IMG/VR virus record: IMGVR_UViG_3300023192_001544
Coordinates: 1-24,893 of that record
Reading direction: 5' to 3' (one strand)
DNA length: 24,893 bases
DNA from: a virus
Every line of letters starts with the position of its first letter. Position 1 is the stretch's first letter. Below, in pieces: positions 4,601 to 24,893 of the stretch. The notes beneath the pieces were generated by a model that saw only the letters and a list, made by a program, of their open reading frames with translations, was not told the DNA's origin and did no database searches. Both the position numbers and the translations under genes were made by a program.

Positions 4601-7600
4601 TATTGTCTCATGTTTACGGGCCTATTTATAGAAATGCTGATTTTTACTATGATGGAAGTGCGGTTTTAAATACAAGTTCCAATCTTGTTAATAGAACTTT
4701 CGCGGACCCCTTTGCATTAAATCTCGCTTTGAGTGGAGCTAATTACACCAGTATTGGTGTAGCCCCCTACTTTGCTTCCGCCATTCACAGCGAATCTCCT
4801 TATTTTGGATTTCCTGAGTATAGAACTCAGTTTGTTTTAAGTGGTGTAAACTTTATTGATAGTTCCTCTCTCTACGGCACTCCTGCTAATGAATTTTTAG
4901 TTTATAAGTTAGGAGATTTGGTTAAATCCACCGTGCCTAGCGATGATAATTATCTTATTAATAATAAGTGTTTGATGCTGAAGAAAAAATCTCATGGACT
5001 GCCTAGATTTTCTATTGATTTACGTGGAAGTGAGGATCTGAAGAATATTTTAATTCCTGAACATGATTTTGAGCTTTCAGTAGATTATCTTATAGGGAAT
5101 CAAGAAGAGAGATCTTTTGGGGGTGGGGGGATTGGAGTTATTCTCCGAACAAAAGTAGAGCCCGTTAGAGGGGGAGGTTACGTGTTCTTTGTATGGACTC
5201 CACAACAAGAGTGGAAAATGGTTAATGTTAATGATGTAACTAACGGTTACACCAGTATTGATACTCTTATCAATAACTACACACATATATTTTCTGGGGG
5301 GGATACTTCTACTGTTAGTATTCCTAATGATTGCCCCCAACTGTCCGTGGGTAACTTATTATCACGGGTAAATAAAAATACTTTCAAGCAAGGGAAATTT
5401 AGGTTCCATACGAGAAACATGATAACTAAACTTCCTATTGAATATGCTACTTATCGTCAAACAGGAGCCGCCGCAGAAGTTTATAATGGGCGGTCTGTTC
5501 AATTACATAGAGCATTCATTAGTCAGAGTGCGAAGACACAAAATTATTTTATAGAGGTTTTCCCTCTTCCTACTAACTCTGATAAACAGTTTGCATTATT
5601 CGATAAAATTAATGTAGTTGATACTACTCTTAATGAGGCAGCGTGTATTCCTTATAGCGGAAATATAGTAAATCTTAATCGTAAATTAGATACGGTAGAT
5701 AGGACCACTTTCTATACCTCTAAAGGAGATACATTAGATTTCCAACCTGTTATTGTTGGTTCGTGGAATGATGAGGCTACTGCGGATATATTTACCATTA
5801 ATCCTCGCCTATGGCAAACAGGAAACACTTCTGTATGGAATGACCTTCCTCAAGACGCTACGCTATTCCAACCCTGGGCAATTGCTAATTCTTCACAGCT
5901 TCTTAAAAAACAGTTTTTGCTTAATTACCCTTTGGCTGGATCAACTAAGTCTTTATGGGGGACAGATGATGCTCCTTGGGGAAGAATACCTTTTACAGGA
6001 TTAGTAAATGTTACATGGACAACTACTCCTACAGGATTTACTAATTCGGAGACTACCGCCGCCGTTGTTGGCGAGGATAATCTTACTTTTGCCGCTAAGA
6101 CTGAAATACTTAAACGGTATTGGGATGATCGAAAAGGGTTTTTGGCTGTTAATGATTGGAGCGAATATATTACTGTAGGGGAGAGGGTTATTGGCTTTGC
6201 TCCTAATGAGCTTGGGCCAGGAGTATATGGTAGTGATGGGGGAGTTAGTTGGTGGCATCTTGGTGGCCCAATCGGTTCTACAATAGTCCCTATAAGACCT
6301 TTGTTGGGTGTAGCACGATCTGGTCATTCTTATAGCGAACAAAATAAGGGAACTAAAGCTGTTGCTAACCCCTTTGGAAGAATTCCTAGTGAAGAATTTA
6401 TTCCTAGTGAAATCTTGAACGGGGTTCCTGGGGTAGTTTCGGTAGGTGCGACTCAAGAAGTAGACTTTACTTCTAGACGGAGGGGGGATAGTGGTGTTTG
6501 GAGTGCGGTGGATCCTCTTCTTCCCACAATCATAGACCCTTTAGGATATGTAACTTCATCTACAGCGTTTAAAAATTTAATTAATATTCCCTTGGATAAG
6601 GATCCAACGAGCGACCCCTTCGTTTGGGAAACGTCTAGTATTTGGGTTGATGAGGGTCATGCTATTACGTTCCCACCACTATCGGTTTATAGAGATATCA
6701 AAAGGGATAGATTAATTCATGGTAAAGAATATACCTTCGCTATGCATGTGGCTTCTCCTGGATCATATATCTCTAATTACGCAGATAGAATTGGATTCGC
6801 TACTTCTGCTATTTTGACAATTGCCCCTATAGGATCTGCTGAAAGTTATACTAGGCTTACCTTACGCCTTCCTAGAGATGGGACTACTACTGACCCCTTT
6901 GTGGCTAGTTCTATTCAAACTAACGGGCACACTTTAACAGGGGGCGCTGCTGCTCGTATAACGGTTAGTGCAGTTAATCCTTTAGGAGGATACCCTACTA
7001 CTGGAGGTGATAATTTAATGTGGTATAGAATGGAAGTTACTATTCCTTATGACAGCCAGGAGTTAGATTCTACTGATAAAACTAATTTAGGGTTGCGATG
7101 TTCTCTACAGGCATATAATGATTATTGGGATGAGGCGTTTTCAACTGGACACCCGCCTGCCAACTTAAGCTATGAATACTACCCTTGTAGGCTATGGACT
7201 TGGGGGCCATCTTTTCATGCTGAAGCTAGTGGATTAAGTTTTACTCGATATCCTCAAGTGGTTTATGCCATTTCTAGAGTTAATGGGGGCCATTGGGGAG
7301 CGTGGCAAGATACGTATGCAACGGCTAATACTATGGTTTATAATAGTATTAATAATATTTTGGAGGAGGAAACGTTATTTCCTAAAGAAGTATACAACAA
7401 AGATGATGAGCTTTATATGTATAACAAAGAAGCCTCAGGACTTTCAAAGTTAACTGTAGCCCAAGACGTTGCAAATAATACTCTTTTTGCATCTAAGCTT
7501 TTTAGTAAAGTTCAATTGTTTGATAGTAGCGGGAATTTATATAATGGGGATATTACTCTTAGCCCTGACCAGTATTTGATTAGGGAAAAATATGGAGATG

Positions 7601-7917
7601 AAGAATCTAGTGAGTTTGGTCGGAGGCTTACCGTGTCGGGAACACAAGAGGGTACGAATATTTTAAAATCAGTGGTGGGGAAGATTTTATTAGAACCTAG
7701 AGAACTTATACATCTTTTCCAGTACTTTAATAAGTTAGGAAAGCAGTGTGCTGGTCCTGCTCTAAACACTAGAGTTGGCAGTGATGCGGCTGCTATTCAT
7801 GACTTGAGTGGAGGGAGCAGATTAACATATAGAATTAATCCCGATAATCATTTAGTATCCTTGGACGGGACAAACGAAGACTTTGGAAATTATACAATAC
7901 TGGATGTAAATAATTAA
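1618..7917 (+). CDS. Giant baseplate/tail protein with a P2 gpI (T4 gp7-like) domain, 2099 aa
   Basis: The ATG directly abuts the preceding stop, with no recognisable Shine-Dalgarno. Residues about 308-392 match the phage tail protein I pattern: FSRYLQAVSYLLRDLDNEVE, then a DCPVDFLPYLASLIGW segment, then RLYKKRGTKAGLEEAL. This family partners gpJ/gp6 in wedges, and T4 gp7 is the T4 counterpart, so gene order and domain agree. At 2099 aa it is about twice T4 gp7 (1032 aa). The rest is Ser/Asn/Tyr-rich and beta-strand-like. Residues about 1140-1260 look like a beta-sandwich. Residues about 1700-1880 resemble a carbohydrate-binding jelly roll, with HGKEYTFAMHV, then MWYRMEV, then LWTWGPSFHAEASG, and echo the insert in the next gene. 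No transmembrane segment or signal peptide is seen. The gpI domain call is solid; the roles of the remaining roughly 1,700 residues, probably host contact or cell-surface binding, are inference. Confidence 0.8.
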   Translation: MARKYSKSNFVDAVKIITPDIYLEEDLAVGGQKIKYTDQVINSHLVGINSISTANDSPIGGQSPFLHLSSIPNNVSYSSIDTPEGFSRYFIKQNNLTNLSPQDFDKRILTKLNTALKNYDSSSDFAAYVSSTLLPKFTLNSSSLLADNSGVYGSTLSGIHDYFITNLGWLYFLNTSGPIFDPSSLVLDTLVNTIYGGTSYRLNDAIKDYQTYVWKNYYDYTASDPAYPDDITYNTTAGFNTLNAGLIPAPFASSTGTFTSGTQNLEKLNTFIDIVYSPLYIDREDNIVQRAIEEFLSANSKLSSMESAGPFSRYLQAVSYLLRDLDNEVESLETLLSIQDCPVDFLPYLASLIGWNLYGVNEVSWRNQLSNAVRLYKKRGTKAGLEEALDTIIVQNPLNTSGSIITELYESYIPNLLYYLLLTDSPLFNFEYYTPEVAQALGVDSYDSANMDVNIRAAVDSIIKSAIEEFPHLFINRNEPFRINLLANGRGWFGDILKDPRFEDQYMNPEGIPVAIKADPNFVFNYRTPNHVTQVPPWEEEKFYKNCGVTSDLLNFYANRLGAFCVSLKYRNSFVDYVTEFVLDITDTDLYLGNSYVFFTSAQEYSPNHDHILTTYQTSSYDALSLWNGKSSTFDLTIGAGSFSSTFFQNVSGQYTVQQIVDTLRIVDDFSPAKAIPRTRLYLTQEEHLSGIDFMCPSIRWGIADVPPVSGPWSNTEISGVNDRGTGFALGYDIHPGYDDSRSTVSHEFAPCFHRKGSEYSNNIVRSVVNTSSIVPESISRNTVRRRDFYNTLNKKSWYDRTGWNMPSFYNAASSIVDYYPLGFIPSSFSFADGSPHNLSGVYSKDCNTSGSNRTYFGVPVSSAFLVRGNTGITFSSCDSYVRRNITPPEIILFFNLEEKKKKALANATYKYNESLLTTSAAWLNFTDSLANRMDDLSENKYQGPILDRRRASVDSSGGVQSVYNDYNKFFGTSVSFSSLPENLVQKHKHGGANILSHVYGPIYRNADFYYDGSAVLNTSSNLVNRTFADPFALNLALSGANYTSIGVAPYFASAIHSESPYFGFPEYRTQFVLSGVNFIDSSSLYGTPANEFLVYKLGDLVKSTVPSDDNYLINNKCLMLKKKSHGLPRFSIDLRGSEDLKNILIPEHDFELSVDYLIGNQEERSFGGGGIGVILRTKVEPVRGGGYVFFVWTPQQEWKMVNVNDVTNGYTSIDTLINNYTHIFSGGDTSTVSIPNDCPQLSVGNLLSRVNKNTFKQGKFRFHTRNMITKLPIEYATYRQTGAAAEVYNGRSVQLHRAFISQSAKTQNYFIEVFPLPTNSDKQFALFDKINVVDTTLNEAACIPYSGNIVNLNRKLDTVDRTTFYTSKGDTLDFQPVIVGSWNDEATADIFTINPRLWQTGNTSVWNDLPQDATLFQPWAIANSSQLLKKQFLLNYPLAGSTKSLWGTDDAPWGRIPFTGLVNVTWTTTPTGFTNSETTAAVVGEDNLTFAAKTEILKRYWDDRKGFLAVNDWSEYITVGERVIGFAPNELGPGVYGSDGGVSWWHLGGPIGSTIVPIRPLLGVARSGHSYSEQNKGTKAVANPFGRIPSEEFIPSEILNGVPGVVSVGATQEVDFTSRRRGDSGVWSAVDPLLPTIIDPLGYVTSSTAFKNLINIPLDKDPTSDPFVWETSSIWVDEGHAITFPPLSVYRDIKRDRLIHGKEYTFAMHVASPGSYISNYADRIGFATSAILTIAPIGSAESYTRLTLRLPRDGTTTDPFVASSIQTNGHTLTGGAAARITVSAVNPLGGYPTTGGDNLMWYRMEVTIPYDSQELDSTDKTNLGLRCSLQAYNDYWDEAFSTGHPPANLSYEYYPCRLWTWGPSFHAEASGLSFTRYPQVVYAISRVNGGHWGAWQDTYATANTMVYNSINNILEEETLFPKEVYNKDDELYMYNKEASGLSKLTVAQDVANNTLFASKLFSKVQLFDSSGNLYNGDITLSPDQYLIREKYGDEESSEFGRRLTVSGTQEGTNILKSVVGKILLEPRELIHLFQYFNKLGKQCAGPALNTRVGSDAAAIHDLSGGSRLTYRINPDNHLVSLDGTNEDFGNYTILDVNN

Positions 7918-9768
7918 ATGATTGGAACAGTAGAAATTTATAGAGCTTTTGGTACTCCTCGACAAGAATTATTGTACGAGGAGAATAACCTTATTGTTAA
8001 TGGAGGAGGCCAAGCTATATGCGATATTTTAACTACTCCTTCAGGAGTCGCTTCAGCCCTCCCCTTCCAAGGATCTTCTCTCACTGATTCTTCAAACTTT
8101 ACTGTTCAAGCTATTTCTTTTGGGAAATCTTCAGAGGCGTATAGAAATAATACTCACTTCTATCCTTTTGATCTTTCCTCTTATGTTGGGGTGGGGGAGT
8201 ACGAATCTTATATTAATCTTGTAAAAGCGGATAAAGTAATTAGAGCCGTATCTCTTATTGATGAAAACATAGATTCTACTCTACATTCTTATGATCCTAA
8301 GCGAGATCCTGGGGCCACTCCTAATGTTAACGACACTCAATTAGAACCTAACACTCGTTGCGGTATTGATTTGGTATCAGGACAGTACCATTCAATGGGG
8401 GATAAGTTAATGCAGGGACGGTCTCATTCTGTCGGGCACAATTTGAATAGGGTTCAAAGTAATACTAATCCCAACTTATTATCTTACACAGAGAACCCCA
8501 ACAGCGATCCCAACGCTGGTTCTGGGCCTGACATGGCGAACCAAACGGTGTGGACCTCTAGCACAGGGGTTGCAAAAATCACCCTTTTGGATGAAACTAC
8601 AGGCCCCTTTTCAAATACCTCTGCGATTTTGGTTAGTGGGACGGGAGTTGGGGTTGCTGTCCTTAGGCAAGAGAATCCCCTGCAAAAAACCTATTTTCAT
8701 CCTAATCTAGATCATACTTTCAGTCTTTACGCTAAACTTCCTGATGTAAATCCTGCATCAAGTTTAACTCTTAATATTAGCGACAGAACAGCAAACACAG
8801 TAAGTCATTCAGTAACATATTCTTTTTCAGGAGTAGATACTAGCACTATATCAGACCCTGTGATAGTAAATACTCTCAACGGAGCCACAGGACATATCAC
8901 CCCTAGCGCAGGTGTGGATGGTTCAGGAGGTTGGTATAGATTAGAGTGTCGCTTAGAAAATTTAGGCACGGTAAGCGTTAGTACTGTATTGGTAGATGAT
9001 TTAAATGTGCGAGCTACGCTTGGGACTCATAAGTTGCTATCGGACGATCCAGCCGCTATTTATTTCTATGGGTGGCAGTTAGAGGAGAGTGCGGTTGCTA
9101 CTGAATTTAATAAAGTTGAAGGGTTAAATCCTACAGACGCAGAAGGGGGTTTAGGAGGAGACTTATTTTTGGGGTGTTGGCCTCCTACCAAACAAGCGGA
9201 CTTTGCTATAGTTTCTAGTATTTCTAACCTATTAACTCCACAAGATAATATCTATGTAAGTGGTAGTTACCCCACCAGCACTACAGGTCATTATTTTAAC
9301 TCCTCTGGAATTAGATCTATGGATAGAAATGGATATGTAAAAGCATTATATGGATTACATGGAGATGCGTATACTAAAAATGATCCTGTCTCTGGTTTAG
9401 TGGTATCAGCATCCCATCTAGGAGACTTCTCTTCTACAGGAGAGGTTATGTACGTATGTACAATTTCATCAGGAGATTTAGGGTATGCTAATATGTACGG
9501 GGGACTATTTAAAGTGGGGCTATGGACTATTGATTTAGCTGAAACTCTAAAAAGCGTAGACCCTGAGGGTAATCCCAAAGGGGTTCCTGGGTTCCCGTTA
9601 AGATTTACTGCAGGCTATAATAAATTAGTATATAAGTTATTCGCGGAGAAGAGCTTTACTAAAAATATAGCAGCCATTAAAGATGATGGGGCTAAGGATG
9701 GATGCACAGCGTATGACGATCTTACGCTTATCTGGAAAATAAAATTTACGGGGGGAGATTTACCATGA
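7918..9768 (+). CDS. Tail fibre-like protein: adaptor module split by a jelly-roll insert, 616 aa
   Basis: The start abuts the previous stop (TAAATG) without a clear ribosome binding site. Residues 1-75 (start MIGTVEIYRAF, then EENNLIVNGGG) align with the N-termini of the next two proteins. The C-terminus (GLW, then YKLFAEKSFTKN, then LTLIWKIKF) aligns with the end of their shared module. Between these halves lies extra sequence. Residues about 185-402 look like a lectin/carbohydrate-binding beta-sandwich of the kind common in tail fibres: a TENPN start, HTFSLYAKL, GGWYRLEC and a closing YFYGWQLEESAVATEF. The whole is best read as a virion adaptor carrying an inserted glycan-binding domain. 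I do not recognise a named family for the module. The stop overlaps the sulfatase gene start by four bases (ATGA), so the two are probably made together. Structural role is likely; ligand is unknown. Confidence 0.65.
   Translation: MIGTVEIYRAFGTPRQELLYEENNLIVNGGGQAICDILTTPSGVASALPFQGSSLTDSSNFTVQAISFGKSSEAYRNNTHFYPFDLSSYVGVGEYESYINLVKADKVIRAVSLIDENIDSTLHSYDPKRDPGATPNVNDTQLEPNTRCGIDLVSGQYHSMGDKLMQGRSHSVGHNLNRVQSNTNPNLLSYTENPNSDPNAGSGPDMANQTVWTSSTGVAKITLLDETTGPFSNTSAILVSGTGVGVAVLRQENPLQKTYFHPNLDHTFSLYAKLPDVNPASSLTLNISDRTANTVSHSVTYSFSGVDTSTISDPVIVNTLNGATGHITPSAGVDGSGGWYRLECRLENLGTVSVSTVLVDDLNVRATLGTHKLLSDDPAAIYFYGWQLEESAVATEFNKVEGLNPTDAEGGLGGDLFLGCWPPTKQADFAIVSSISNLLTPQDNIYVSGSYPTSTTGHYFNSSGIRSMDRNGYVKALYGLHGDAYTKNDPVSGLVVSASHLGDFSSTGEVMYVCTISSGDLGYANMYGGLFKVGLWTIDLAETLKSVDPEGNPKGVPGFPLRFTAGYNKLVYKLFAEKSFTKNIAAIKDDGAKDGCTAYDDLTLIWKIKFTGGDLP
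9750..9757 (+). promoter_or_regulatory. Strong Shine-Dalgarno for the sulfatase gene
   Basis: A GGGGGGAG run ends 7 nt before the ATG at 9765, inside the 3' end of the upstream gene. It supports the chosen start. It is one of the few clear ribosome binding sites in the tail block, where most other starts have none and seem to rely on stop-start coupling. Confidence 0.7.
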
Positions 9769-12700
9769 AGGGAAGTGTAACAGTTAATAAAGTTTTTTCT
9801 GATGGAACCAAAGAATTGGTTTGTCATGACGATAATGTTTTAACTGATGGTATGGGGTATGGAATTATTAATATTTTTACCGACACTGGATCTAAAAACA
9901 TTGCAGACCATTTGGTAGGATATTTTCAAGTGGGGATTGGTAGATTAAATCCTGATCTCCAGCCAGCAGATAAGAGAAAATATATAAGTACCTTAAAAAC
10001 ACCTCTGACAGAGGGAAGCTATGGTAAGAATCCTGAGGTTGAAATAAATTATCACCCTCTTAAAAAACTTCATAAAACAAACTTTAGTCCTTCTATTCAT
10101 GAGGAAGTCGAGAACTCTAACTTTGTCATTTTACCTGATGCGTATAGTACTCAGCTTATAGAGGGGGTAGTTCATTATCGACTTCATATTGGAGAAGAAA
10201 TAGCTAATGGTTTAAATATTTCTGAGTTTGGGTTATTTCTTAGAAATCCCGATGGGGCTATTAATACAGAGAATTCTATATTAGTAGCTTATAAGAATTT
10301 TCCTGTTGACGAAACCATTACTAAAAATAAGAATTTTTCTCTGGAAATTGATTGGCAAGTTAAGTTTATAGACGAAGTTAATACTGAGATTGAGCCTTTA
10401 AGCTCTACCGCTTTAAATGTAGTATTTATCATGATTGATGACGTGGGGTTTGATTACCTAGGCCTGTATGATGATGTAAATCCTTATGATTTATCTTGTA
10501 CAGGAGAGTTTACAGCCGATGGTCTCGTTAATCCAGATTGCAATCCTTATAGCCAGATAGATGACCCTGTAAATGGGAGTGGAATATACCCACATACCCC
10601 CTGTTTGAGTGCTTTAGCGGCTGCTGGAATCTTGTTTAAAAATGTAAGGGCTATGCCTACTTGTAGTCCAACTAGGTCTTCAGTTATTACAGGAAAGTAT
10701 AACTTTAGTTGTAAAAACAGTAACCAAGGAGGTCCCCCTGGTCCCGCTATTTGGGGTCCTGGAATAGGATCCGTCCCTAGTCCTGTAGGTAGACGGGCGC
10801 GGGGTGGTCTAAAAGGATTAAACAGATCTTATACTCTTTTACCTGCCTTTAATGCTACAGATCAAACACCTAGACCTTTTGAATATTTAGTTAGAGGAGG
10901 ACAAGGAGAAGAAAGCGGGATCGCTAACCAGAAAGTTTTTGCAGAGTATATGCGAGACAGAGGGTATAGCTCCTCCTTCTTTGGGAAATGGCATTTAGCT
11001 CATTGGGAAGAGAAGTTAGTTTATTGTGAGGATGGATCGGATCAAGTTTATGGAGAGGGCTGGAATAACATTGGAGAAGTAGGTAAGTGGGATCACTACG
11101 TTGCCACTTGGGCTAACTTAAGAAATGACACCCCGATACCTGGAAAAGCATTTGATAGTGGCTGGGTTGCTTGGCAGGGCTCCCATCCCGACGATCCTCA
11201 AGAAGGGTGGCCTAATTTTGGAAACGTTCCAGCCGATCCGTTCTATTTGAAGGGGGATGAGATGGGGTATGTTAATTTCTTTGATGTTTCAGGAAATAAT
11301 GATCCTGCTAATATTGATAGTTACATAGTAGAAACTGTTTCAGATACGGGGTATGTTCCTCCTATGTTGTCGGCTTCAGCGTCCCCAGTATCTTATGCTC
11401 AAGGATCTCCCACTAACTTTGCTACTACGCATATTTTTGAAAAGGCTACACAACATTTTGGTTCTTCAGCTATAAACCCAGAGCCCTTCTTTCAGTATAT
11501 CACTCCCAACCTACCACATGATCCTTGGACTTTCCCACCCGAAAAAGGGGTTTATAATCCCTACTATAAAGCTAATCATATTCAGATACTCCTGCAGGAT
11601 GGTAATCCTATATTGTTTGGTGGCACGGAAGGGGCTACATCGGCTAGTTGGATGACAGTAAATTCTCAGCTTGAACACTTTGATTATACTTTAAGTGCGT
11701 TCATGGACTCTATAGATCAAGAGGTAAAAAAGAGAACCCTTTTTATTATTACTTCGGATAATGGTTCTGTACCTACTGATCTGAATAAACGAGCAAACTT
11801 TTGTGTTTCTACGGTAGGCTCGAATTACTTAGGGACTACCTTTAGTAGCATGTTGAATTTAGAAGACCATTGTGCTGCACAGTTTGCTGCGGATCTAGTT
11901 GGATCTGAAGAGCCTGTTCGTAGAGGAGGGCAGAATAATTCTGCAAACCAGTTTAAAGGCTCTTTATATGAAACGGGAGTGAAGGTTCCAATGATTGCTT
12001 ATGGACCCAAAGTAGGAGTTTTATCTGGCGTAACATCAAATGCGTTTATTGATCTTGTTGATATATTAGCAACTGTGGTAGATGGGGCTAGTACCCAGAA
12101 GTTACGAGGTCATGATATTCCTAGCGACTCCATATCCTTTTTAGATATTCTTACTGGAGCTACTGATGCGTCAAGCCATCCCCGACAATTCTCTTATTCT
12201 GAAGACTTTTTTCCTATAGGATCTAGTTTTGGAAATCCAGAAGGAGCGGGGTCTAATACAAGTAAGGCCCTTCAATGTCTAGGGGGGAATAACATTGATA
12301 TTGGGTTTGGAGATCCTGTTGTTCCCTCAAAACGTAGAAGTTGTATGTTGGTAAGACATGCTGCGTCAGAATATGCTGTACGACCCGCGCCCTTAATTGC
12401 TCAATTAGTATTTAATGAAATAGGTTTCACTGGATCCTATGCCGGGGACGGAAATAGTGATCCTGAGGGTATTCCTGATGCTAGTGGAGGAACATGGAAA
12501 ATAATAAGGCCAGCAGGGGGTACGGTTGATGAAGGTACAGATGATGAGAGGTACCTAAAAGGATCTCTTTATGATGAGCTATATCAGATTCAAAAAGATG
12601 ATTTTAGTAATGTGGATACTTTTGAATTATATGATTATATTCCTGAGGAGTGGAAGGGAGAGCTTCCTGCAGGGCAGCCAGGAGAAGTTGGACCCTTTAT

Positions 12701-22171: not shown

Positions 22172-22570
22172 ATGAATTTTAATGAAAGTGTAGATAAGGA
22201 TTTCGTCGATCTTGTTCTTGAAAGTTCTCTTTGGTCAAAGGCTAATATTAAGGTGAACAGAGACGCGGCTATCAATGAGTCTGAGGATGAGGGCGATATA
22301 GGAATTATCCCCGAGTATGAAAATGGTGTTGTTAACGAATTCGAAGAGCCTACGGATATGGACGTACAGTATGCTGAAGCAGAAGAAGTTTCTTTCACTC
22401 TTGATGATCTTCAACTAGTTCTTGATAATCTTGATGACGATTCCCTTATGGAACACGCCATGAATATGCTTGACGTTTTTGACGTTGCTTATGATACTCT
22501 TAATGAGGGTGGTGATGACGATGATGAGGATGAGGAAGAAGAAGAATCTGAAGTCGAAGCTAAAGCATGA
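22172..22570 (+). CDS. Acidic prohead core-like protein (T4 gp67-like in position), 132 aa
   Basis: A GGAG at 22160-22163 lies 8 nt before the ATG. The protein is extremely acidic, ending in a GGDDDDEDEEEEE run at residues 113-125. Residues 10-28 (DFVDLVLE, then WSKANIKV) form a motif repeated in the next protein. Sites resembling the T4 gp21 cleavage rule ([IL]-x-E) occur at I34-N35-E36 and L110-N111-E112, and a near match (V15-L16-E17) sits inside the shared motif. In T4 the small acidic core protein gp67 lies between the portal and the gp21 protease genes; this gene holds a similar place before the protease. The core/scaffold role is inferred from charge, size, position and putative cleavage sites, not from recognisable sequence similarity. 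Confidence 0.55.
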   Translation: MNFNESVDKDFVDLVLESSLWSKANIKVNRDAAINESEDEGDIGIIPEYENGVVNEFEEPTDMDVQYAEAEEVSFTLDDLQLVLDNLDDDSLMEHAMNMLDVFDVAYDTLNEGGDDDDEDEEEEESEVEAKA

Positions 22571-23022
22571 AAGAAATTGACATTGCGGCTTTCGCAGAGT
22601 CCCTGCTTACTGAACGCATAGAATCAGGAAAGCCTGTTCAATTTGCTGCTGAACAGTCTCCCGATGCTCCTGATGTTTCAGATGTAGAAGTCTCTCATGA
22701 TTTTACTTCTCAGATATTAAATGAGGGGTATTGGGATAAGGCAGATATTAAAGTAATTGTCCCCACAAGAAGGGTTTTACGCAAAAGACCAGTTGAATTA
22801 ACTAAGTCTTCTGATTTAAGTGAAGAAGTTCAGGTACGTAAACAGCTTTTTGGGGAGTATAGAAATAAACTTAAAGAGCTTGATGAAATTGTTCAAGAAA
22901 TGACCACAGTAGGGATGCTTGGAGTGGGGTCAGGAGCCGTTGTGGCCTCTGGAATGACAGTATCCTCTAAAAAGAAAAAGAAAAAACATGCTAATGCCCG
23001 TACTCGTAGATTTAATCGCTGA
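22567..23022 (+). CDS. Small prohead core/internal protein candidate, 151 aa
   Basis: The start overlaps the previous stop by four bases (ATGA). The N-terminus, MKEIDIAAFAESLLTE, is an amphipathic segment ending in L-T-E at residues 14-16, much like the capsid-targeting peptides of T4 internal proteins. Residues 45-63 (DFTSQILNE, then GYWDKADIKV) repeat the motif of the upstream gene, and L51-N52-E53 within it matches the gp21-type cleavage rule. After a charged helical region (about 80-112) comes a Gly-rich hydrophobic stretch (residues 115-131) and a KKKKKK run followed by a basic tail. T4 gp68 is a positional parallel, but I see no direct similarity. The end overlaps the next gene by 35 nt. 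Confidence 0.55.
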   Translation: MKEIDIAAFAESLLTERIESGKPVQFAAEQSPDAPDVSDVEVSHDFTSQILNEGYWDKADIKVIVPTRRVLRKRPVELTKSSDLSEEVQVRKQLFGEYRNKLKELDEIVQEMTTVGMLGVGSGAVVASGMTVSSKKKKKKHANARTRRFNR

Positions 23023-23413
23023 AGAAAACTCTCGGCCTAAAAGTAGAGGAGACTACCATACTTTGAAGGATGGTCCTGTAACCGCTAAAAAATCTAAAGT
23101 AAAAAATTATCCTAGTATTAAGATTGCTTTACGGAGAGGTTATCCTGGGCAAATTTTTTCTACAAAGGGTGCCGCTAGGCTTTATGTTGTTAGTAATGCC
23201 GGGTGGGGGAAAAAGAGTTCGGGACGTATTGCAAAAGGGTTCACCCCCGGATCCGCAACGCCCTCGGCTAATTGGGATAGTATCAAAGGCCATGCAGTCA
23301 GGACTATGAAAAAACACGGGAAACAAAAGACCCGAAGATTCGAAGACTATAAAGATAAAGATAAGGATAAGGATAAGGATAAGGATAAAGTTCGTGGACG
23401 CGAACGAGACTAA
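22988..23413 (+). CDS. Basic internal/head protein candidate, 141 aa
   Basis: The ATG at 22988 overlaps the upstream gene by 35 nt. A second in-frame ATG at 22994 is equally possible, and neither has a Shine-Dalgarno beyond A-rich sequence. The N-terminus MLMPVLVDLIAE ends in I-A-E at residues 10-12, closely like the T4 internal-protein targeting peptide, which also ends in IAE at its cleavage site. The remainder is strongly basic (many Lys and Arg, KKSKVK, RTMKKHGKQKTRR) and ends in a KD repeat (residues 122-133) and VRGRERD. A mature, DNA-binding internal head protein is the natural reading. Residues about 41-85 (from YPSIKIALRRGYPGQ on) look folded. No family is recognised, so an injected host-takeover protein is also possible. 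Confidence 0.55.
   Translation: MLMPVLVDLIAEENSRPKSRGDYHTLKDGPVTAKKSKVKNYPSIKIALRRGYPGQIFSTKGAARLYVVSNAGWGKKSSGRIAKGFTPGSATPSANWDSIKGHAVRTMKKHGKQKTRRFEDYKDKDKDKDKDKDKVRGRERD
23351..23386 (+). repeat. Hexanucleotide repeat, six units
   Basis: Six in-frame copies of AARGAT (two AAAGAT then four AAGGAT) encode alternating Lys-Asp at residues 122-133 of the 141-aa basic protein. Such a tract can change length by slippage without shifting the frame. Confidence 0.85.
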
Positions 23414-23415
23414 AT

Positions 23416-24837
23416 ATGATTTTAACAGACACTTTTATTGTAGAAAATGCCGAGTTGTTAATTGAGCAACGAAACGGGAAAACAATTAGACGCTTAAGAG
23501 GAATCTTTGGTCGTTGTGATGAAAAAAATAATAACGGTAGGGTTTACTCTAAGACCCTTCTTGAACGAGAAGTTAAGCGTATTTCTGAGGCTATGTTCGA
23601 TAGACGTTTACTTGGTGAGCTTGATCACCCCACTCATGATGCTATTAAATTAAGTAATGTTTCTCACTTGATTACTAACTTAGATTTTAATGGAAAAGAC
23701 CTTGTTGGAGAGTGCGAACTACTTGATACCCCTGCTGGTAAAGTTGCACAAGCTTTAATTGAAGGAGGTGTTAGGATTGGTATCTCCTCTAGAGGTATGG
23801 GAACTCTTTCAGAACACGCAGACGGATCCAAGCATGTTAATGAGGATTTTAAGCTTGTTACTTTTGATTTAGTAGCTGATCCTTCCACTAGAGGAGCATT
23901 CCCAGACATTACTGAGTCTGCTTTAATTGAAGAAATCGTAAAGGATACTTTAGAAAAGGCAGCGAAAGAGAAAGTGTTTACTACCATGCTAAAAGATAAA
24001 TTACGAGAAAGAATTGCGGGAGAAGGAACTCAAAGTGCAAAATGGACCAAGGATACTGTATCACAGCTTCAAAAGAAAGCCGTTAAGAAAAATCCTAAAA
24101 AGCCCACAGTCAAGGAGCCTTTTAAAAATTGGGAGTACTGGTATGGTTGGAACCTTGGGAAGCCAAGAGTGAAGAAAACAAGAAGCTACCCCGATGCGGA
24201 ATCTGTTACTGCTCCAGCGGAAGTTACGGAGAATAAATTTTATCTCTTAAAGGATATCATCCTTGAAGAAAACGGGTCCTTCGGGGTTCTTTTGCAAATC
24301 TTGGAAGCATTAATCAAAAGTAAAGGGGCCTCTTTTAGAGCCGCTAAAAGAACTGTTAGGCGACCTGGGGCTATCAAGACTGCCCTTGCAGGAGCAGCAG
24401 AAAAAGTAGGGCGTAAATTAGTAGGGGGTGAAGGTGAAGCTGGGGGCGTTGCGGGAAAACTTAGACAACTTAAAAGAAAAATCCAACATAGGAGCCCTGG
24501 TTCTAGTTATCAGCAGCGTTATGATGCAGAGAAGCATGGTTCAGGGGGCGCACAGAAGCATGTTGCTGCTCTAAAGGATAAAGCAACAAAACCAGAAGCA
24601 CCTAAGGTTGACCGACTTGCTGCCACTAAAAGAAAGATTGTTGCCGCGAGTAAGAGGTTAAAGGCTAAGGAAACAGTAGTAGCGTCCGATAAAGGGGGCT
24701 CTCAGACCCATAGACCTAACACTAGAGCCGTTCGACAAAAAGCTAAGGAAGAGTGGAGAACATCCCAGTCTGCTAGAGGAAGAAAGAGTTCCCATACCTC
24801 TAGAGGAGATACCAATCCTAACACCTCCTTCAATTAA
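23416..24837 (+). CDS. Prohead maturation protease, T4 gp21 family, with long basic extension; 3' end chimeric
   Basis: Residues about 20-165 match the gp21/prohead protease pattern: NNNGRVYSKTLLEREV, then LLGELDHP with likely catalytic H71, then VSHLITNLDFNG, then DTPAGKVAQALIEGG, then GISSRGMG with nucleophile candidate S124 or S125, then LVADPS with D155. In T4 this serine protease sits in the prohead core and cuts core, scaffold and capsid proteins after [IL]-x-E. Similar sites in its own sequence are LIE17, LIE172 (just past the catalytic domain) and ILE284, suggesting self-processing. T4 gp21 is 212 aa; here about 250 extra residues, very rich in Lys/Arg/Ala, follow and may be a fused core or DNA-binding part. 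The window sequence is trustworthy only to 24781. Residues 456-473 come from the inverted copy of this same gene and should be discarded, so the true C-terminus is missing. Confidence 0.88.
   Translation: MILTDTFIVENAELLIEQRNGKTIRRLRGIFGRCDEKNNNGRVYSKTLLEREVKRISEAMFDRRLLGELDHPTHDAIKLSNVSHLITNLDFNGKDLVGECELLDTPAGKVAQALIEGGVRIGISSRGMGTLSEHADGSKHVNEDFKLVTFDLVADPSTRGAFPDITESALIEEIVKDTLEKAAKEKVFTTMLKDKLRERIAGEGTQSAKWTKDTVSQLQKKAVKKNPKKPTVKEPFKNWEYWYGWNLGKPRVKKTRSYPDAESVTAPAEVTENKFYLLKDIILEENGSFGVLLQILEALIKSKGASFRAAKRTVRRPGAIKTALAGAAEKVGRKLVGGEGEAGGVAGKLRQLKRKIQHRSPGSSYQQRYDAEKHGSGGAQKHVAALKDKATKPEAPKVDRLAATKRKIVAASKRLKAKETVVASDKGGSQTHRPNTRAVRQKAKEEWRTSQSARGRKSSHTSRGDTNPNTSFN
23699..23810 (+). repeat. 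Left arm of a 112-bp perfect inverted repeat, inside the protease gene
   Basis: This stretch encodes the conserved DTPAGKVAQALIEGG to GISSRGMG part of the protease, so it is the original copy. Its exact reverse complement forms the last 112 bases of the window. Confidence 0.97.
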
Positions 24838-24893
24838 AGCTTGTGCAACTTTACCAGCAGGGGTATCAAGTAGTTCGCACTCTCCAACAAGGT
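24782..24893 (-). repeat. Right arm of the 112-bp inverted repeat, at the window end
   Basis: Base for base this is the reverse complement of 23699-23810, with a 971-bp spacer between the arms. Pairing stops at 24781/23811. It replaces the real 3' end of the protease gene and runs to the last base, the usual look of a fold-back chimera at a contig end. Confidence 0.97.

What the first reader, a model, noticed from the sequence alone, without database searches (positions are those of the whole stretch)
22172..23466. Four adjacent head genes each carry an N-terminal hydrophobic-x-Glu candidate leader
Near the N-terminus of each product lies a short amphipathic or hydrophobic stretch ending in a gp21-like P3-P1 triplet: VLE17 (acidic protein, near-consensus), LTE16, IAE12 and LIE17 (the protease). 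T4 internal proteins use such a leader (ending in IAE) to enter the prohead core and are then cut there. Together with the protease gene this suggests a self-contained set of targeted, processed core/internal proteins, two of them (basic 141-aa and mixed 151-aa) without known relatives to me.
Basis: partly seen in the sequence, partly recalled or inferred. Interest (0 to 1): 0.7.

Follow-up and report, generated by a model that had tools for sequence, protein, structure and literature searches.

The report
Marine T4-like prohead core leader cassette
Next to its head protease, an uncultivated marine relative of phage T4 carries small core-protein genes with conserved cut sites for that protease, and its close relatives use the same kind of leader on tandem sets of up to ten or more unrelated basic proteins, probably an expanded set of proteins packed in the head and injected into the host.

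Summary
The four genes and triplets are present as described. The protease is a T4 gp21 relative (Pfam Peptidase_S77, 8e-23). Gene order resembles T4 67-68-21-22-23, with an extra gene (p141). Against relatives: VLE17 (acidic protein) is kept in 10/10 near but only some far relatives; IAE12 of p141 is kept in every complete homolog and is its only invariant Glu in the near clade; LIE17 (protease) is kept throughout; LTE16 of p151 is absent from the far clade, whereas its LNE53|G is conserved. All six invariant Glu of the three small proteins sit in h-x-E, against 8 of 35 variable Glu (p=0.0007). An embedded leader, NKFYLLKDIILE284, precedes a basic tail in the protease. The suggested genome-wide scan paid off: near relatives carry tandem arrays (about 11 leader starts in 4.2 kb at most) of small basic proteins sharing MN(S/T)Y(E/D)(R/K)IYNLL(V/T)E| with otherwise unrelated bodies, resembling an expanded T4 internal-protein set. 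Cleavage, packaging and injection are inferred, not shown. The last 112 nt of the contig are an inverted copy of its own protease gene, probably an assembly artefact.

The parts
22172..22570 (+). acidic core protein, 132 aa (gp67/Pip-like by position and acidic tail)
   Evidence: no Pfam or PHROG match; homologs precede p151 in the related loci
22172..22222 (+). N-terminal element of the acidic protein ending in VLE17|S
   Evidence: E17 invariant in 10/10 near relatives, present in 8/14 far sequences
22505..22507 (+). codon of E112, LNE|G just before the poly-acidic tail
   Evidence: L-x-E|G/A/S/D in 10/10 near relatives
22567..23022 (+). p151, mixed protein with basic C-terminus (gp68-like by position)
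   Evidence: no family match above cut-off
   Evidence: h-x-E at residues 13-19 in 9/10 near but 0/8 far homologs
22723..22725 (+). codon of E53, ILNE|G, the conserved site of p151 inside a motif shared with the acidic protein
   Evidence: E53 invariant in 10/10 near relatives; F..(I/L).E|G/S also in most far homologs and in G015 and G009; profile match to acidic protein residues 6-31, 26 columns, E 2.9e-5
22822..22824 (+). codon of E86, LSE|E, second conserved h-x-E of p151
   Evidence: 10/10 near relatives
22988..23413 (+). p141, basic protein with conserved domain (about residues 35-115); start may be 22994
   Evidence: no Pfam, PHROG, PDB-sequence or named-phage match; AlphaFold2 pLDDT 67, helix 5-14, no fold match
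22988..23023 (+). leader of p141 ending in IAE12|E
   Evidence: leader ending in h-x-E in 22/22 complete homologs plus G015 and G009; E12 the only invariant Glu of p141 in the near clade
23416..24837 (+). gp21-like prohead protease (Peptidase_S77) with long C-terminal extension; the last ~18 codons lie in the palindromic contig end
   Evidence: Pfam S77 8.3e-23, PHROG_207 4.9e-51
23416..23466 (+). N-terminus of the protease ending in LIE17
   Evidence: h-x-E with E17 in 11/11 near relatives; aligned Glu also in P-HM2, HTVC008M and T4
23626..23628 (+). codon of H71 in GELDHP, predicted catalytic His
   Evidence: alignment with T4 gp21 GELNHP
23785..23790 (+). codons of S124-S125 in ISSRG, predicted nucleophile region
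   Evidence: alignment with T4 gp21 VSSRG
23914..23916 (+). codon of E167, ITE|S at the end of the protease domain
   Evidence: (L/I)(S/A/T)E|S in 11/11 near relatives; near T4 gp21 ITE|S in the alignment
24232..24267 (+). embedded leader NKFYLLKDIILE284|E in the protease extension
   Evidence: [YF]..[ILVM]..hh.E in 12/13 related extensions, mean 0.06 (max 2) after shuffling; 5.54 vs 0.21 per 1000 aa in other proteins
24268..24781 (+). basic tail after the embedded leader, inferred fused internal-protein cargo
   Evidence: variable in sequence and length among relatives
24782..24893 (-). 112-nt perfect inverted copy of 23699-23810 at the contig end, probable assembly artefact

Best explanation
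This is the prohead core cassette of an uncultivated marine T4-like phage. The acidic protein, p151 and p141 enter the growing prohead core, and the adjacent gp21-type serine protease, also in the core, then cuts after Glu in (I/L/V)-x-E. The cuts would remove the N-terminal targeting segment of p141, fragment the acidic protein (after E17 and E112) and p151 (after E53 and probably E86), and trim the protease (E17, E167). The protease extension carries a second leader (to E284) and a basic tail, so the protease appears fused to a cargo protein. A leader of the same type heads tandem arrays of small basic proteins elsewhere in near relatives, matching the T4 arrangement in which a capsid-targeting sequence loads unrelated basic internal proteins that are later ejected into the host. 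Shown: gene content and order, S77 membership, conservation of the triplets, shared leaders on unrelated bodies. Inferred: packaging, cleavage, injection, cargo function.
For: S77/PHROG head maturation protease. Same gene set across two clades of marine contigs. Scaffold and major capsid genes follow, and the capsid protein has L/V-x-E in 10/10 near relatives around the place of the T4 gp23 cut (T4 sequence). All six invariant Glu of the three small proteins are in h-x-E, versus 8/35 variable Glu (p=0.0007) and 14/42 invariant Glu of tail and neck controls (p=0.003). p141 leader ends in h-x-E in 22/22 complete homologs. Embedded leader in 12/13 protease extensions, shuffled mean 0.06. Leader arrays: 44 leader-starting ORFs at score >=6 versus 1 from shuffled N-termini; 41 genes in 26 body clusters; 95% of candidates net basic. 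Arrays and an S77 protease lie on one contig in G001, G009 and G015. T4 precedents: L/I-X-E specificity, gp67/gp68/gp22 fragmentation, 10-residue CTS with determinants at residues 4 and 7 (PMC9026906, PMC5694885); in the array leader Y4 and I7 are nearly constant.
Against: No virion proteomics. Far-clade acidic proteins often lack the P1 Glu while keeping the rest of the element (K/N/Q), so it must do something besides cleavage. Protease E17 lies just before the conserved first part of the protease domain and may be kept for the fold. Orthologs are not independent. The embedded-leader pattern was widened after seeing the extensions, and a matrix trained on array leaders alone gives only modest scores for core proteins and the extension. 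G009's protease extension lacks the motif and G015's has only a variant. No sequence homology to T4 gp67 or gp68 was detected.
Confidence: 0.78

Rival explanations
1. The N-terminal triplets are mostly coincidence: glutamate and aliphatic residues are common, and four neighbouring proteins having one each means little.
For: Background rate 27% per protein; per-protein shuffle rates 0.17-0.35; LTE16 is not kept in the far clade.
Against: Three of the four Glu are invariant in the near clade, and in p141 it is the only invariant Glu; p141 leaders end in h-x-E in every complete homolog.
Confidence: 0.1
2. The conserved elements are docking helices for core or scaffold assembly that are never cut; the Glu is part of the binding face.
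For: The F(V/A)..(I/L)(L).E..W.KA.I.V element is shared by the acidic protein and p151; far-clade acidic proteins keep it without the Glu.
Against: Other sites are at typical processing boundaries (before the acidic tail, at the end of the protease domain, near the capsid-protein cut); the P1 Glu is kept while neighbours vary. Docking and cutting are not exclusive: the T4 CTS does both (PMC9026906).
Confidence: 0.25
3. p141 is an enzyme or nucleic-acid-binding protein of the capsid with no leader function; its short N-terminus is only a helix.
For: p141 has a conserved core (30 invariant columns across two clades), unlike the variable T4 IPs.
Against: The leader is separated from the core by a variable, poorly modelled linker, yet its (I/L)xE is kept in all complete homologs.
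Confidence: 0.12

Closest known systems
Phage T4 prohead core genes 67-68-21-22-23
   Same: Acidic small gene, small gene with basic C-terminus, S77 protease, scaffold and capsid protein in the same order; L/I-x-E sites; ITE|S near the protease C-terminus
   Different: An extra conserved basic gene (p141) before the protease; long protease extension with an embedded leader; acidic protein and p151 share an element; no detectable homology to gp67 or gp68; the genes follow tail genes rather than the portal gene
T4 internal proteins IPI, IPII, IPIII with capsid-targeting sequence
   Same: Short leader with aromatic at 4 and hydrophobic at 7 followed by small, mostly basic, unrelated bodies; IPII and IPIII begin MKTYQEFIAE|A
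   Different: Leader 13 rather than 10 residues; up to about 11 leader starts in 4.2 kb, some inside longer fused ORFs; of ten bodies tested none matches PHROGs or reaches a Pfam cut-off; the array of G001 has no nucleotide match in 50,697 phage records
gp21 of cyanophages and Pelagibacter phage HTVC008M
   Same: 36-47% identical S77 protease domain
   Different: The gp21s examined (P-HM2, HTVC008M) have no comparable extension; p141, p151 and the acidic protein have no match in named phages
phiKZ/SPN3US prohead proteases and ejection proteins
   Same: Cleavage after x-x-E with several processed internal proteins (PMC5694885)
   Different: Those propeptides are mostly far longer; a different phage lineage

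Membership tests
Peptidase_S77 (T4 gp21 prohead protease) | profile match above the curated cut-off | tested here: met
   81.3 bits vs cut-off 27, E 8.3e-23
Peptidase_S77 (T4 gp21 prohead protease) | conserved GEL-x-HP and VSSRG/ISSRG motifs | tested here: met
   H71 and S124-S125 align with T4 gp21
Peptidase_S77 (T4 gp21 prohead protease) | proteolysis after L/I-x-E in the prohead | not testable with these tools
   only conservation of candidate sites
T4 gp67 (Pip) | small protein with poly-acidic C-terminus near the 5' end of the core block | tested here: met
T4 gp67 (Pip) | sequence homology | tested here: not met
   hhalign probability 2.8%
T4 gp68 | sequence homology | tested here: not met
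   hhalign probability 0.6%
T4 gp68 | small core gene with basic C-terminus between the acidic gene and the protease gene | tested here: met
   (with p141 in between here)
T4 internal proteins (CTS-bearing) | short leader ending in h-x-E on a basic body (p141) | tested here: met
T4 internal proteins (CTS-bearing) | one leader shared by several unrelated basic bodies in one genome (arrays of relatives) | tested here: met
T4 internal proteins (CTS-bearing) | packaging into the head, removal of the leader, injection | not testable with these tools
   needs virions
T4 internal proteins (CTS-bearing) | presence of an array in the window's own virus | tested here: inconclusive
   the 24.9-kb fragment shows no leader-headed array; only the embedded leader in the protease was found

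The most novel reading that the evidence does not exclude
This marine T4-like clade packs a large, rapidly exchanged set of ten or more different basic proteins into each head through one interchangeable 13-residue leader, partly as polyproteins with internal leaders, and has fused one such cargo to the head protease itself, which frees it by self-cleavage; the cargo serves host takeover or anti-defence on injection.
Probability: 0.5. Interest if true: 0.78.

Novelty: new variant of a known kind. Interest (0 to 1): 0.62.

Why it matters
T4 has three internal proteins; its IP1-3 inhibit type IV restriction enzymes (PMC12373910). If the arrays found here are the same kind of system, uncultivated ocean phages related to T4 carry a much larger set of candidate injected proteins, recognisable by one short leader, none of which (ten tested) matches a known family. 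The leader motif gives a direct way to list them in metagenomes and to test capsid targeting. The cassette also suggests what the little-understood small core genes beside gp21 do, and adds a conserved new core protein (p141).

Tried and rejected
LTE16 as p151's processing site: weak; E53 preferred. Matching the acidic protein to gp67 and p151 to gp68 by sequence: no signal. Identifying p141 by Pfam, PHROGs, PDB sequences, Foldseek on PDB and BFVD: nothing; the model is of moderate confidence (pLDDT 67). A matrix trained on array leaders does not pick out p141's shorter leader and scores core proteins only modestly, so I do not claim one uniform leader for all of them. Shared-leader gene families in far-clade contigs G002-G005: none found. 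psbA as a cyanophage marker: absent from the seven contigs searched. PMC395341 (Repoila et al. 1994) was not held. Two region requests and one annotation request failed on size limits. The regular expression for p151 site 53 also caught the N-terminal FAESL..E in several near homologs, so for the near clade I rely on alignment A3 instead.

Full report
Observation. The position alone is therefore weak evidence; comparison with relatives was needed.

Identity. The fourth gene is an S77 prohead protease (Pfam 8.3e-23, PHROG_207 4.9e-51), 36-47% identical over its matched part to gp21 of the best-matching cyanophages and Pelagibacter phages. The window is a 24.9-kb IMG/VR fragment. Forty-three IMG/VR loci carry relatives of the protease. 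They fall into a near clade (L001-L010, 70-80% identity) and a far clade (55-66%). Where the contigs reach far enough they keep the order acidic protein, p151, p141, protease, and then scaffold and major capsid genes. T4 has 67-68-21-22-23. The acidic protein, p151 and p141 have no match among 50,697 named phage records.

Which sites are conserved. In the near clade the invariant Glu of the three small proteins are E17, E94 and E112 (acidic), E53 and E86 (p151) and E12 (p141). All six lie in [LIVM]xE, against 8 of 35 variable Glu (p=0.0007) and 14 of 42 invariant Glu in tail and neck control proteins (p=0.003). E12 is p141's only invariant Glu, and a leader ending in h-x-E is present in 22/22 complete homologs plus two more contigs. 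p151's conserved site is ILNE53|G (10/10 near), inside an element shared with the acidic protein (26 columns, E 2.9e-5), also seen in most far homologs (L020 has ILGG instead). The acidic protein's L-x-E112 sits right before its acidic tail in 10/10. In the protease, E17 is kept throughout, and (L/I)(S/A/T)E167|S closes the domain in 11/11, close in the alignment to T4 gp21's ITE|S. T4 gp21 is expected to be processed at its C-terminus, and a review notes that its N-terminal LIE9 fits the logo (PMC9026906). The capsid protein has L/V-x-E around the place of the T4 gp23 cut in 10/10.

Protease extension. Near-clade proteases have extensions of variable length. Twelve of 13 contain [YF]xx[ILVM]xx-h-h-x-E, for example ENKYAFLKSVLSE|N and, in the window, ENKFYLLKDIILE284|E, followed by a variable, often basic tail. 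Shuffling the extensions gives 0.06 on average, and other proteins of the clade have 0.21 per 1000 aa against 5.54 here. The pattern was fitted after viewing, so this supports but does not prove the point. In L002, L004 and L009 a separate short basic gene with a similar start (MNNFSTLRVLLE, MNLFKNLRLILE, MSPFSKLKILLE) follows the protease.

Leader arrays. Scanning the 75-kb contig of L001 showed neighbouring genes starting MN(T/S)Y..I..LL.E followed by unrelated basic bodies. A back-translated pattern found further arrays in IMG/VR, with about eleven leader starts in 4.2 kb of L080, some of them inside longer ORFs that look like polyproteins. Forty-four ORFs score at least 6 against one from shuffled N-termini; 95% of candidates are net basic, median 116 aa. 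Forty-one genes form 26 body clusters. Ten representatives match no PHROG and no Pfam family above its cut-off. The body of one array gene (MKAYEKIYRFLTE|DTPSKTE...) is 53% identical to that of the L004 gene after the protease, which has a different leader, so bodies and leaders appear to be exchanged. Arrays and an S77 protease lie together on G001, G009 and G015. G015 has the length of, and by its match appears to be, contig QCKN01000003.1 of the single-cell genome Prochlorococcus sp. AG-409-P03, a host lead only; psbA was not found. The far-clade contigs, whose proteases mostly lack the extension, showed no shared-leader family.

Mechanism. T4 precedent: gp21 cuts after L/I-X-E; gp22, gp67 and gp68 are fragmented; the IPs enter through a 10-residue CTS whose targeting depends mainly on residues 4 and 7 and whose processing depends on residues 8 and 10 (PMC9026906, PMC5694885). 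T4 IPII and IPIII begin MKTYQEFIAE. The array leader keeps the aromatic at 4 and the hydrophobic at 7 and ends in L-x-E at 13. I therefore read the window as the core cassette of such a phage, p141 as a leader-bearing core or internal protein of unknown fold, and the protease extension as a fused cargo. Packaging, cutting and injection are inferences.

Caveat. The last 112 nt of the contig are a perfect inverted copy of 23699-23810, so about the last 18 residues of the 473-aa ORF are probably not real and the gene's true end is unknown.

Noticed in passing
window 23699-23810 and 24782-24893: Perfect 112-nt inverted repeat at the contig end: probable assembly artefact; the 473-aa ORF runs into it and the 77-aa open minus-strand ORF there is the inverted protease gene.
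   Followed up: yes
L078 (G001) complement 7452-10060; L080 25-4240; L084 1913-4212; L077 899-2249; G015 121647-129379; G009 103763-110620: Tandem arrays of small basic genes sharing a 13-residue leader with unrelated bodies, some fused into longer ORFs with internal leaders.
   Followed up: partly
window 22187-22264 and 22687-22764: Acidic protein and p151 share a 26-residue element ending in W.KA.I.V: duplicated docking or processing module.
   Followed up: partly
far-clade acidic proteins, e.g. L033 6580-7107, L024 3891-4328: Far-clade acidic proteins carry a conserved CPLCE motif absent from the near clade; possible metal site, second half not identified.
   Followed up: no
L102 / G015 (QCKN01000003.1): A 130.6-kb contig of this phage group sits in a Prochlorococcus single-cell genome; host link or co-sorted virus undecided, psbA absent.
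   Followed up: partly
L012 2272-2610, L033 6111-6482, L036 6113-6463: A small gene with repeated V-x-V-x-G-x-G-x-x-R-x-G-D-like stretches, PAAR-like in look, lies just upstream of the core cassette in several relatives but was not seen in the window.
   Followed up: no
L043 144-1040: One protease extension contains a collagen-like G-x-y stretch after the embedded leader.
   Followed up: no
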